From positions 2,232,001 through 2,296,000 of the forward strand of contig NC_054689.1 in the NCBI RefSeq assembly GCF_011074885.1: a DNA stretch of 64,000 bases. The letters are read 5' to 3'. Source of the stretch: Brettanomyces bruxellensis (Eukaryota; Ascomycota; Pichiomycetes; Pichiales; Pichiaceae). The notes beneath the pieces were generated by a model, which saw only the letters and a list, made by a program, of their open reading frames with translations, was not told the origin of the DNA and searched no databases. Below are positions 23,441-28,210 of the stretch, piece by piece (the stretch's first letter is position 1; each line of letters opens with the position of its first letter). The position numbers and the translations under genes are program-made.

Positions 23441-24218
23441 TCTTTGTGACTTCGATATTATTCGGCAACTTCAAAATTTCCCTTTTAGTTTCTGCAAGAT
23501 CCGAAAGGGTGATAATGATATTCGAATCAAAACACAACTATTCTTCTATGCTAGATCTGTTTATGTTTCAGGATGTTGATATAAAATTCGTGGCTATTCG
23601 GCCTGGAGTAAAAACTGTGAATTTGATGAGATCTCCCAGATTCTCAGAGGTCAATAATTAACTGAGAATGCGAGACTATCTTGTGAAACAGTTAATCACA
23701 CCCTGACAAAAATACCAACTGTAAAAAAAAATGCTCGGATCCAAATTCAAATTGCTTTAATCTGAAACTGAACTTAACGATTCTGCGTCTACTTGTGGAG
23801 GTAAAGGTATATATTTATGGACATCCCGTAGATGTATTGTATATGAGGAAAGGGGAAAAGTTATGGGGACTAGTGCGAATTAGCTCGAAAAAGTGAGAAT
23901 TTGAATCAGGAAAAAGGGAGAAGGGGGGAAAAAATAAAAAGCAGGAGAAAAGTAATGCGATCATATTTTTCATTTAGGAAGACAAATGTTATTTTCTATG
24001 GGAATGCAGAATGTGCCGCTTCACCATCTTAGCTACCATATTTGGTAAATATCTAGCGTCAAATTTCTAATGACACAGCAAAAAGATGAGAGGATAAATC
24101 GTAAAAGCTTGCGGTTGATATTTAAACCTGCCATTATATCTGGTAGATAAATAAATAGTGTATGGTTTGGTATTTTTATTTGCCTCTTTACCTAATTTAA
24201 TAGACGGGTCAGGGTGTC
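23441..24218. other. MCK1 promoter and left flank of the retroelement
   Basis: About 780 bp separate the MCK1 ATG from the retroelement. Plus-strand frames of 60-83 codons overlap the MCK1 start (23397-23661) and look fortuitous. Purine-rich DNA occurs at 23850-23955. No tRNA gene, the usual Ty1 neighbour, was seen here. Confidence 0.5.
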
Positions 24219-24223
24219 CTTTT
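24219..24223 (+). repeat. 5-bp target-site duplication CTTTT (left)
   Basis: The CTTTT immediately before the left LTR is repeated exactly after the right LTR at 28206-28210. A 5-bp duplication is the mark of Ty1/copia integrase. With both copies intact, the element has not been rearranged by recombination with another copy. Confidence 0.92.
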
Positions 24224-24727
24224 TGTTGAGTTATAGAATTCGCGGAGGAATCCGAATAACTCGTATTTGGCTCTAAAAAGGGAGCCTGACCTGTTTCGGC
24301 AGTAGCATTACCGCCTTTTGGAGTAGATTGTAAGTTATCCGAAGGGTTAGTTGACATATTAATAGAATACTAGCTTATATTAAGATATATAGCGGTGATA
24401 GTCTCTAAAGAAAGAGGTAAAATAGTAACAAAATAATAATAGAGTGAGAAAATACAAGGGGTGTTGCTAGACCCCTTATATATTCTTACTCGGGGAGAGG
24501 CCACATATCCCAAATATGGGCAATGACCCGTTCAAAGTAATATAAAAAGTAATAAGGGCAATTCGCATGGCTTTAACACCAGTGAAATACAATAAAAGTA
24601 ATGAAAGATAAAGTAATCCTTAAATATAATTGGTCCAAGGATGTAAATAAAGAGAAAATTTCTCGAGGTTGTGTGGTTAACAACAATTGTCTTTGCAATA
24701 TTCCGCTGATGGTAGAATATTCCAACA
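24224..24727 (-). repeat. 3' LTR (504 bp)
   Basis: This is the left copy of the terminal repeat, the 3' LTR of a minus-strand element. It begins (plus strand) TGTTGAGTTATAG and ends GAATATTCCAACA, with TGTTG/CAACA inverted ends. It appears base-for-base identical to 27702-28205. It also places a gag-like ATG at 24357, whose reading frame runs out into host DNA. Confidence 0.95.
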
Positions 24728-24734
24728 CACCCCC
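24728..24734 (-). other. candidate polypurine tract
   Basis: On the element strand the sequence GGGGGTG directly precedes the 3' LTR. This is where the plus-strand primer of an LTR element lies. The run is short and contains a T, so the assignment rests mainly on position. Confidence 0.45.
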
Positions 24735-24753
24735 GTAATGAGGTAATGGTTAA

Positions 24754-25620
24754 TTAATCATTGATAGACTTAATGAGTTCTTTGAAATCAGATAGTTCTA
24801 GGATATATGGCATGAGTTTGTCGAATATTGCAATGCTTGTAGGTTTGGTAAGAATGTCTGTTATTTGGTTCTCGGTCCCAATTTTCACGATAGCAGCCTC
24901 CTGCGTTGCAACACTATCCTTGATTACATTCCTATCGATGTCCATGAGATTTTCGCATTTAGTTGGTGTCTCTGATTCATCCATTATGATGTTGCTTTGA
25001 TTATCCTCATAGTACGCGACGATATCTGACCGAAGTTTCAAGTTGGATATCGTCTTGATGATTTTCATCAAATGTTGTAGAATATACCCATAGTTAGAGG
25101 CGTTTACTAGGGTAATGTATTCCGCGTGCTGTAGATATTTAGCAATCATGGATTGACTTCTGGATTTCCAAAATATGGATCCATTAGTCATGAACATCAA
25201 TCCTTCTTGACTTTTTCTGTCAATAGAATTGGAGACCAAGTTCGCGTCACAGAATCACCTTAATTGTAGTGGTTCAAGTAGATGGTCGCAAGTGAATGGG
25301 ATGCCGAAGTTTTCAGTTTGGTTGAGGTAATTAATAACTCTCTTCAATTGATACCATATAGACTTTATCTCATACTTACTAGCCTCCGCTAAATAATTAG
25401 TTGCATATGCAATGTCGAGTCGGAAATTTGAAGCAAAGTAGTTCAACCTGTTTGAAAGGTCTGCTGACACAAGAATCTTTTATTCATCGATATTTTCAAA
25501 AGATGGTTCGAACTAGTAGTGTCCGGGCGAGATATGTGAATCGACTGCATTTGGAAACAATGTTCCGGTGTAATTTGCATTAATTGTTAATGAGAGAAAT
25601 ACCCGAAAGTATGATCCTGT
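24754..25620 (-). pseudogene. copia pol remnant: reverse transcriptase end and RNase H
   Basis: One minus-strand frame reads through the C-terminal end of a Ty1/copia polyprotein. It includes LNYFASNFRLDIAYATNYLA (reverse transcriptase end), then CDANLVSNSIDRKSQEG, YEDNQSNI and TENQITDILTKPTSIAIFDK (RNase H and tail). It stops at 24754, 26 bp before the 3' LTR, as in an intact element. Three in-frame stops break it: TAG at 25515-25513, TAA at 25482-25480 and TGA at 25257-25255. Upstream the frame decays further. It cannot make a working polymerase. Confidence 0.88.
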
Positions 25621-27676
25621 CATGTCCAGATGAATCTCTGTCACGAAGTACATTCAACATCATCATATGAATTCCGATCAATAATTTTGGCAGCTATTTC
25701 ATCCAGAAAAGGACTTGCTTTTTCCAGACATCAAATACTATTCACATAAAGAACTAGTAAAACAAAATTGTTATTCCATCTGAGACCATGAAGGTTCTCA
25801 TAAGTCAATGAGTCGCAGCCTAGAAAGGCTGACTAACGGTCAATTGTATTATTCCATAAATGTCCATTCTGATTGCCTGTATGATTGCAATATTGAGCTG
25901 AAGTCTTTTCCATCTCTTGTAACTTGTATTTTGTCGTGAGTAGGCATACCTATCTTTGTCAAGTAAGACATTTAAAATATGTCAATATATCCATTTGAAT
26001 GTAGTCCCATGACATTAAGTACTTCAGCGAGATCATAATCCAAACGTTGTAATCGTTGCATATTGGACTTTAAGTTTCCTCGTAAGTTTCTTCTTTTCGC
26101 ATATCATACATAGAGTCGACATGTGTATTAGTTAGATATCCTGTCTTCATTGTATAAACCCATATCGAGTTTGGGAGGCATATGCTTTTTAGGAAGGTCA
26201 ACTTCTGATCAAGTTTAATTCCGTTTATTTGCCAAGAATTCTTTATTCATCGTTTCGGCAAAGTTTGACTGATCCGATGCATCCTTGCACGATTTAGAAT
26301 TGAGTTTCCCATTTATGCCGACTGCATTGATTTGCGGCGATTTCAATCTATATGACCCGAGCCTTTATGCAATTATGCTGGCAGATTTAAGGTTCTTTAT
26401 AGCCTGTTTCGAATGTCTGCGTGCTATTTGAGGCGTTCTCACATTCGCAAATGGAGATTCCCTCGGTACTTTCTCATCTGTATCTGCTTCTGGATCATAT
26501 AGGTATCTAGTCTTAAAACCTTGGAAGGTGAATGTAGATTGTTATCTTCTGATTAACTGGAACACTAGATGCCATGACAATTGATTCCTTTATTAAGATA
26601 TCCTCTGAAGAGTCAGAGGAATACTAATGGCAGAAGATGAGGGCTTTTATGTCAACCCATTTAATGGCCGTTTAATGAGTGTCACTTCATTAGTGATTAT
26701 TGCTCTGCGGCATAGGCTTATCGTCCAGCATAGATTTATCCGTGTTTTTATCTCGCCTTGTGTCTTGTTCCAATTGATGAATTAGATTATCTGGATTAAC
26801 GTTACCGACTCATCTCAACCCCTTAAGATCAGGTGGCTGGTCACTTGATATTAGATTGTCTATTAGGTCGGGTGACAAAGTTAATCTTGAAGATGGAGAC
26901 ATCAGCAAGCGGATCAAAACTGGGATCCTTGACTTTTATATCTGCAACTCTGGCGTCAAATGGTAAGCATTGATATGGAGATAATTATTGACATATGTGG
27001 TTTGTCGACGTATGGAGTTCTATGGCACCTACACATCTGCAATCAACATTCCTAATATTGGTATCGCTTTCTGTTCGAAGTACTTCGAACACAATAGTCG
27101 ATCCAACTGGATGGTTCATGAAGGTAGGGTACACTTTGATCCATTCTGTCAAACCACTTTCTTGTTTTTGTTGTTGAACCCATGTATAGAGACAACCGAT
27201 TGAATCGATCGCGGAGATTCATAGTTCTTATTTGAACAAGAAAACAAATAATAATATCTCCAGTTTTCTCTTTGAAAAGTAAGTTAAGTCATACCAAATG
27301 AATATTGTCGGAATATCTATGAAATCGGAACTACTCCTCTGGAAATAATTCCGGACATGACATATGTACCGATTCCAACTGTAGGCTATCCAATCAGTCA
27401 AACTGCATACACAGATTGCGTTAAAGTTTCGCACAGTGAATCATTTACCAATTGTTGATAAGCAGCATTAATTGGATCCGTTAATCCCATTTGACCGGTA
27501 TCCATGTAGATCCATCAATATATAATATCTTTAGCAACACCATTGAATAAGAGTTCTTAACCCTTTCCTGTGAGAGATGGTTCCGAATTGAGACTAATTA
27601 AACTATAGAAATCGGAACCAAATAGTTCACCTGAACTATTATTCTTATATTGAATAAGCATACGCTTCAATATACT
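25621..27676 (-). pseudogene. degenerate internal region of the retroelement
   Basis: No intact gene remains. Minus-strand stretches of open frame alternate with stops. One of 77 codons runs from 27218 to a TAA at 26987-26985 (contains WIKVYPTFMNHPVGSTIVFE), continuing after that stop to a TGA at 26843-26841. Another frame near 26690-26790 contains SMLDDKPMPQSNN, and one near 26180-26330 contains CKDASDQSNFAETMNKEFL, which resembles the start of copia reverse transcriptase. Integrase zinc and catalytic motifs and the YVDD active site were not found, so a large part of pol appears to be deleted. Confidence 0.65.
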
Positions 27677-27835
27677 TCAGTCCTCCTCGGAGATCGCACC
27701 ATGTTGAGTTATAGAATTCGCGGAGGAATCCGAATAACTCGTATTTGGCTCTAAAAAGGGAGCCTGACCTGTTTCGGCAGTAGCATTACCGCCTTTTGGA
27801 GTAGATTGTAAGTTATCCGAAGGGTTAGTTGACAT
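27677..27835 (-). pseudogene. gag N-terminus starting inside the 5' LTR, early stop
   Basis: An ATG within the 5' LTR (27835) opens a 52-codon frame that begins MSTNPSDNLQSTPKGGNATA, crosses the LTR boundary and stops at TGA 27679-27677 after HGAISEED. Starting gag inside the LTR is a Ty1 feature. The Ser/Thr/Asn/Gln-rich composition also recalls Ty1 Gag N-termini. The frame is open again after the TGA for about 50 codons, so the stop looks like a point mutation in a once longer gene. Confidence 0.7.
27690..27701 (-). other. candidate primer-binding site
   Basis: On the element strand TGGTGCGATCTC directly follows the 5' LTR. Starting with TGG, it could pair with the CCA end of a tRNA. It does not match the initiator-methionine primer used by Ty1 (TGGTAGCGCC), and I could not assign the tRNA. 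Confidence 0.5.
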
Positions 27836-28205
27836 ATTAATAGAATACTAGCTTATATTAAGATATATAGCGGTGATAGTCTCTAAAGAAAGAGGTAAAA
27901 TAGTAACAAAATAATAATAGAGTGAGAAAATACAAGGGGTGTTGCTAGACCCCTTATATATTCTTACTCGGGGAGAGGCCACATATCCCAAATATGGGCA
28001 ATGACCCGTTCAAAGTAATATAAAAAGTAATAAGGGCAATTCGCATGGCTTTAACACCAGTGAAATACAATAAAAGTAATGAAAGATAAAGTAATCCTTA
28101 AATATAATTGGTCCAAGGATGTAAATAAAGAGAAAATTTCTCGAGGTTGTGTGGTTAACAACAATTGTCTTTGCAATATTCCGCTGATGGTAGAATATTC
28201 CAACA
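27702..28205 (-). repeat. 5' LTR (504 bp) with promoter
   Basis: This is the right copy of the terminal repeat, the 5' LTR of the minus-strand element, apparently identical to 24224-24727. It contains a TATA box (TATATAAG on the minus strand, 27960-27953) about 120 bp upstream of the gag-type ATG at 27835, so transcription would run leftward into the element. Confidence 0.95.
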
Positions 28206-28210
28206 CTTTT
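28206..28210 (+). repeat. 5-bp target-site duplication CTTTT (right)
   Basis: This CTTTT directly after the right LTR exactly matches 24219-24223. It marks the right boundary of the insertion. Confidence 0.92.

What the first reader, a model, noticed from the sequence alone, without database searches (positions are those of the whole stretch)
24224..28205. Recently mobilised but coding-dead copia-type LTR element
The two 504-bp LTRs appear identical and a perfect CTTTT target duplication is kept, so the copy is young. Yet the 2,974-bp interior has no intact gag or pol, several in-frame stops, and looks internally deleted. Point decay after insertion would have hit the LTRs too. The simplest reading is a non-autonomous family whose RNA was packaged and reverse-transcribed by a partner element.
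Basis: partly seen in the sequence, partly recalled or inferred. Interest (0 to 1): 0.75.

Follow-up and report, generated by a model that had tools for sequence, protein, structure and literature searches.

The report
Young insertion of a dead retrotransposon
A yeast copia-type retrotransposon here looks freshly copied at its ends and control sites but its genes were already ruined, so it was most likely copied by the enzymes of a relative, possibly by patching together two parents; the process is known, the example is tidy.

Summary
The LTRs at 24224-24727 and 27702-28205 are identical (0 of 504) and flanked by CTTTT. The element reads on the MINUS strand. The 2,974-bp interior occurs once in the 13.1-Mb assembly. 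Its 5' three quarters has no longer open frames than random sequence; its last 752 bp keeps a 166-codon RNase H piece that has lost conserved residues. The control sites are intact: an 18/18 primer site for tRNA-Phe and a G-rich tract touching the 3' LTR. The window LTR has one private substitution; ten sister insertions, all solo LTRs with matching 5-bp flanks, have 0-14. Decay in place is rejected; the interior was dead before insertion, or both LTRs were overwritten. Copying in trans is the best reading, but a multi-copy family with this interior and a helper with this LTR or primer site were sought and not found. The likely source is a mosaic of a fresh LTR/primer region and a dead core. 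New member of a known kind.

The parts
24219..24223 (.). target-site duplication CTTTT (copy beside the 3' LTR)
24224..24727 (-). 3' LTR, 504 bp, identical to the 5' LTR
24728..24734 (-). G-rich tract GGGGGTG touching the 3' LTR; candidate polypurine tract (plus-strand primer)
   Evidence: role inferred from position
24754..25254 (-). open 166-codon piece, RNase H end of Pol, no frameshift, with amino-acid decay at conserved positions
25255..25479 (-). open 74-codon piece, C-terminal RT, separated from the RNase H piece by one TGA
25974..26246 (-). broken RT relic (interior-sense 1456-1728) matching other copia Pol of the genome at about 25-26%
25480..27683 (-). scrambled 5' part of the interior, 41-43 stops in each frame, gag/PR/IN not recognisable (includes the RT relic)
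27684..27701 (-). primer-binding site, 18/18 complementary to the 3' end (with CCA) of tRNA-Phe(GAA)
27702..28205 (-). 5' LTR, with TATATAAG starting at 27960 and the gag start ATG at 27835 (44 open codons inside the LTR)
28206..28210 (.). target-site duplication CTTTT (copy beside the 5' LTR)

Best explanation
A copia-type (Ty1-like) retrotransposon copy inserted recently in a Brettanomyces-like yeast, in the shared upstream region of two divergent genes. Its RNA had a ruined, probably internally deleted coding region but working control sites. That RNA was packaged and reverse-transcribed by proteins of a related element, primed by tRNA-Phe, which made two identical LTRs and a 5-bp target duplication. 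Shown here: identical LTRs, TSD, intact PBS, decayed interior, and exchange of segments between LTRs of the family. Inferred: trans supply of Gag-Pol, and the likely source of the hybrid, namely template switching between a packaged intact-type RNA (giving LTRs and PBS) and a dead core.
For: LTR pair 0/504 with perfect TSD. One private LTR substitution, present in both LTRs, against 5, 6 and 14 in its three closest sisters; end branch 0.0024. PBS 18/18 to three tRNA-Phe genes. Interior: 5' part statistically random in open frames, 3' part open. Of 38 residue differences from relative P0002, P0002 agrees better with six outside sequences in 18, the window in 5, tie in 15; sign P=0.011. Taking the 18 as window changes, ageing in place predicts 36 LTR differences, P of none about 1e-16; taking only the net 13, 26 differences, P about 4e-12 (equal neutral rates assumed). 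LTR exchange: 72 of 253 informative site pairs incompatible, Rm 6; all 9 fixed differences between the two LTR types lie in 40 bp. The interior 3' end SI/FF occurs in both the decayed and less-decayed lineages (window SI, P0001 FF, P0002 FF, P0003 SI). All 7 copies of the second LTR type share the same stop at gag codon 10 yet sit at 7 sites with their own TSDs.
Against: The interior is single-copy, so no second copy shows the dead core moving. No helper with this LTR or PBS was found. The PBS alone could survive by chance (27% at 7% decay, 15% at 10%). The polarisation uses outside sequences that are distant, and five of the 18 rest on a margin of one sequence. The 3'-end exchange rests on two adjacent codons. 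One of four distant LTRs (L069) also has T at the stop position, and translation of the second LTR type could start elsewhere. P0002 is itself only a fragment and its source organism is unknown.
Confidence: 0.7

Rival explanations
1. Old insertion that decayed in place, whose two LTRs were later overwritten by gene conversion from a young LTR elsewhere (ectopic), so the LTR clock was reset.
For: LTR-LTR exchange is evident in this family: ten close sisters are solo LTRs and LTRs are mosaic. Gene conversion between LTRs is predicted widely in plants and was suggested for yeast Ty (PMC7251063, passages). P0001 shows the dead core with another 3' end.
Against: Conversion within the element alone would leave an old LTR with many private changes; only one is seen. 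Conversion from outside must replace both LTRs end to end, and perhaps the PBS, while leaving the interior and TSD. The nearest possible donor in the assembly is 8 substitutions and a 4-bp insertion away.
Confidence: 0.18
2. Assembly or polishing artefact: the two LTRs differ in reality but were made identical.
For: The LTR is repeated in the genome and reads were not available; LTR identity rests on one assembly.
Against: Ten sister LTRs keep 8-31 differences from it in the same assembly, so LTRs were not generally collapsed. The short end branch of the LTR does not depend on the pair being identical.
Confidence: 0.07
3. Intact element inserted and then decayed in place.
For: Only the ordinary expectation for a broken element.
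Against: Zero LTR differences where the interior's decay predicts 26-36 (equal rates assumed).
Confidence: 0.01

Closest known systems
Ty1/copia LTR retrotransposons of budding yeasts (Ty1-like, with gag starting inside the LTR; the Ty1 layout is recalled)
   Same: TGTTGG...CAACA LTRs, 5-bp TSD, PBS next to the LTR, G-rich tract before the 3' LTR, RT-RNase H at the 3' end
   Different: tRNA-Phe primer site, where S. cerevisiae Ty1 uses initiator tRNA-Met (recalled); RNase H 20-30% identical to the other copia families of the genome over matches of 100 residues or more
Recombinant progeny of old and young copies in Arabidopsis Onsen (COPIA78), PMC5668417 (abstract and passages)
   Same: new insertions that mix sequence of young and old family members, made by recombination like that of retroviruses
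   Different: there the recombination was caught in the act; here it is inferred from site patterns in one assembly
Non-autonomous LTR elements (plant LARD/TRIM/BARE-2 type; Tca3 of Candida; recalled)
   Same: intact cis signals, no coding capacity, recent insertion
   Different: those are multi-copy with a shared interior; this interior is single-copy
Brettanomyces bruxellensis LTR elements, PMC7313668 (passages)
   Same: the host looks like the same genus; that paper counts 26 LTR retrotransposons and at least 96 solo LTRs
   Different: the passages read describe no family with this structure; most elements there are called close to Tdh5

Membership tests
Ty1/copia LTR retrotransposon | paired LTRs ending TG..CA with short TSD | tested here: met
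   504-bp pair, TGTTG..CAACA, 5-bp TSD
Ty1/copia LTR retrotransposon | tRNA primer site next to the 5' LTR and polypurine tract next to the 3' LTR | tested here: met
   18/18 to tRNA-Phe; GGGGGTG touching the LTR
Ty1/copia LTR retrotransposon | Pol similar to copia RT/RNase H (RVT_2) | tested here: met
   tblastn of 39 own-genome copia frames: about 26% identity, E down to 1e-17; but no Pfam retroelement match for the four open pieces tested on their own
Ty1/copia LTR retrotransposon | integrase lies before RT | tested here: inconclusive
   no recognisable integrase in the broken 5' part
Non-autonomous LTR family | no coding capacity but intact cis signals | tested here: met
Non-autonomous LTR family | several copies sharing the same defective interior | tested here: not met
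   interior single-copy in the assembly; the ten close sisters are solo LTRs
Non-autonomous LTR family | autonomous helper with matching LTR or primer site | tested here: not met
   none found in the assembly (one search listed only part of its inexact matches); other strains not tested

The most novel reading that the evidence does not exclude
In this yeast genus dead copia cores are repeatedly re-mobilised by being stitched, during reverse transcription, to LTR/primer regions of other family members. The control region and the core then evolve as separate, recombining modules. One LTR module spread to at least seven sites while carrying a stop in the Gag start, living entirely on partners that have since been lost from this genome.
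Probability: 0.3. Interest if true: 0.55.

Novelty: new member of a known kind. Interest (0 to 1): 0.4.

Why it matters
It is a clear case where LTR identity dates the insertion but not the death of the genes, because core decay and LTR age disagree. It warns against reading LTR age as element age. It also points to a yeast in which mobilisation in trans and template switching between live and dead copies could be looked for in laboratory strains. As biology it is expected behaviour of LTR elements.

Tried and rejected
Decay in place: rejected by the LTR/interior contrast. Further interior copies by DNA and protein in the assembly: only itself, plus other copia families at 20-30% over matches of 100 residues or more and short pieces up to 40%. 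Helper by primer site: the 10-mer of the tRNA end has 24 matches; all 23 outside the window were fetched. Three are tRNA-Phe genes by ARAGORN; the other 20 gave no tRNA gene, and none lies beside an LTR match; LTRs of other kinds at those 20 places were not looked for. The 15-mer of LTR end plus PBS is exact only at the window; with up to 3 mismatches there are 294 matches in both directions against 163 for the reversed control, and only the first places are listed, so a diverged primer site is not excluded. Pfam on four open pieces of the interior: no retroelement family. IMG/VR scan with P0002: no relative. Papers: Neuveglise 2002 is not held. No held paper has all six terms for a tRNA-Phe-primed copia in yeast. 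Other listings; PMC6493715 (passages) reports copia genes and repeats of B. bruxellensis but nothing on this element. These searches do not show that this element is absent from print.

The tree was built across recombining LTRs, so its two-type split is driven by a 40-bp segment; I use it only for end-branch lengths. The species is not settled: nearest named proteins are B. naardenensis 58% and B. nanus 55%, with unnamed ones at 99% and 73%.

Rows left out: of 29 LTR matches, 2 are the window's own, 10 are the close sisters that I counted, and 17 are more diverged (73-90%). Ten fetched regions (L064-L073) hold 11 of the 17; four of them were used as outgroups. The other six matches were not read. 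Private-change counts leave out gaps, so a 4-bp insertion in L004 is not counted.

Full report
What is there. Window 24224-28205 is a 3,982-bp element with two LTRs of 504 bp that differ at no position, flanked by CTTTT on both sides. In element sense the LTR is TGTTGGAATA...ACTCAACA. The coding relics, primer site and gag start all read on the minus strand, so the 5' LTR is 27702-28205. The window is C8:2232001-2296000 of a 13.1-Mb, 9-contig assembly. The neighbour on the right is a 406-aa protein with a squalene/phytoene synthase domain. Its best hits are unnamed proteins at 99% and 73%, and the nearest named ones are Brettanomyces naardenensis (58%) and B. nanus (55%), so the host is Brettanomyces or very near it. 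A protein kinase gene runs the other way on the left, so the element sits in the shared upstream region of two divergent genes.

Control sites. The 18 bases next to the 5' LTR (27684-27701) are perfectly complementary to the mature 3' end of tRNA-Phe(GAA), of which three gene copies were found. By my own count of tRNA positions the match ends just before A58. From recall, A58 is methylated and is where copying of a primer tRNA usually stops; also from recall, S. cerevisiae Ty1 does not inherit its primer sequence, so I do not treat this as proof of regeneration. GGGGGTG touches the 3' LTR. The LTR carries TATATAAG and a gag start with 44 open codons.

The interior. The 5' 2,222 bp has 41-43 stops per frame and a longest open run of 78 codons, as random sequence with the same neighbour frequencies would (mean 81, P=0.51, 1,000 runs). 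The last 752 bp has a 166-codon run (random mean 67, P=0.001). The split was placed after seeing the frames; over the whole interior 166 codons is reached in 4 of 2,000 random sequences on one strand and 5 of 1,000 on both. Comparison with 39 own-genome copia frames finds RT relics at interior positions 1456-1728 (E 6.5e-5 at best) and RT end/RNase H at 2256-2921 (E 1e-17 at best), at about 26% identity. Pfam finds no retroelement family in the four open pieces tested. Against P0002, a 197-aa relative of unknown origin, the 166-codon piece has 128 identical and 38 different residues. P0002 agrees better with six outside sequences in 18, the window in 5, neither in 15 (sign P=0.011). The window lineage is therefore, on this crude count, the decayed one; among its losses is the SST run just before the Glu that is catalytic in RNase H (label recalled).

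The family. The LTR has 29 matches in the assembly. Two are the window's. Ten are at 94-98% identity, full length, all solo, and all ten have matching 5-bp flanks, one of them only TTTTT. Seventeen are more diverged. The interior has no second copy. Private substitutions among the 11 close insertions are: window 1, L003 6, L005 14, L006 2, L007 4, L004 5, L008 0, L060 1, L061 5, L062 1, L063 10. Low values also occur among the second LTR type (L008, L060, L062), whose copies resemble one another closely. So the window is the youngest-looking of its own type, not of the whole family.

Two LTR types. Window, L003, L004 and L005 share one gag start. The other seven share a second, with TAA at codon 10 in all 7 of 7. 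In the first type L005 has a stop of its own at codon 24 and L004 a frameshift. The change to TAA is C to T; C stands in the first type and in three of four distant LTRs, T in the fourth, L069. All nine fixed differences between the types lie within 40 of 504 bp (0 of 200,000 random placements that tight), and the distant LTR L064 shares the first type's base at seven of the nine. Over all 11 close copies 72 of 253 informative site pairs are incompatible with one tree, at least six exchanges. So LTR segments have been swapped. If Gag starts at this ATG, as it does in Ty1 (recalled), the seven stop-bearing copies moved on Gag made by others.

Exchange at the interior's 3' end. The window ends KSIND, P0001 (98% identical, seen in 26 contigs) KFFND, P0002 KFFND, and P0003 (79%) KSIND. 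Both ends occur in both lineages, which suggests exchange close to the 3' LTR; two adjacent codons are slender evidence.

Dating. With 18 residue changes assigned to the window in 498 bp, in-place ageing predicts about 36 LTR differences; with the net 13, about 26; none is seen (P about 1e-16 and 4e-12, assuming equal neutral rates). The upper 95% limit on LTR ageing is 0.3% per LTR. So the genes died first and the insertion came later, or the LTRs were overwritten. Overwriting is less likely, since it must replace both LTRs end to end with a sequence one substitution from its type, and leave the TSD; but conversion between LTRs is real (PMC7251063, passages). For S. cerevisiae PMC3511429 argues that short-branched clusters mainly reflect transposition rather than conversion (passages).

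Most likely mechanism. A dead core was carried in an RNA with working LTR, primer site and PPT and copied by a partner's proteins (trans supply inferred). The contrast between a near-unmutated LTR and a ruined core is simplest if the RNA or cDNA was itself a recombinant of a fresh and a dead parent. Such old-young recombination was observed for Arabidopsis Onsen (PMC5668417, abstract and passages), and recombinant Ty4 clades are described in Saccharomyces (PMC11739139, passages). I put 0.7 on copying of an already dead interior and about 0.45 on the recombinant origin within that.

Against this reading. There is no second dead core and no helper was found in the assembly. The interior's relatives are fragments of unknown origin. 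One assembly was used and no reads. The control sites are short enough that survival by chance is not excluded.

Verdict. The kind is known; the example is clean and slightly richer than reported.

Noticed in passing
L006, L007, L008, L060, L061, L062, L063: Seven independent solo LTRs share a stop at codon 10 of the LTR-encoded Gag start.
   Followed up: partly
G000 contigs C2 and C3: Contig lengths are exactly 460000 and 585000 bases, which looks like cut ends rather than natural ends.
   Followed up: no
G000, among 57 RVT_2 matches, such as C2:12775, C6:16093, C7:1615650: Other copia families have long open frames (up to 1510 aa) and matches with equal scores, so other copia families look recently active in this genome.
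   Followed up: no
window 24067-24369, minus strand: The gag start of the 3' LTR stays open beyond the LTR into the flank toward the kinase gene (about 96 codons from its ATG), so a transcript from this LTR could make a chimeric peptide.
   Followed up: no
L066 (C9:1519590-1521248): A diverged LTR copy is split in two matched pieces about 600 bp apart, suggesting a later insertion within it.
   Followed up: no
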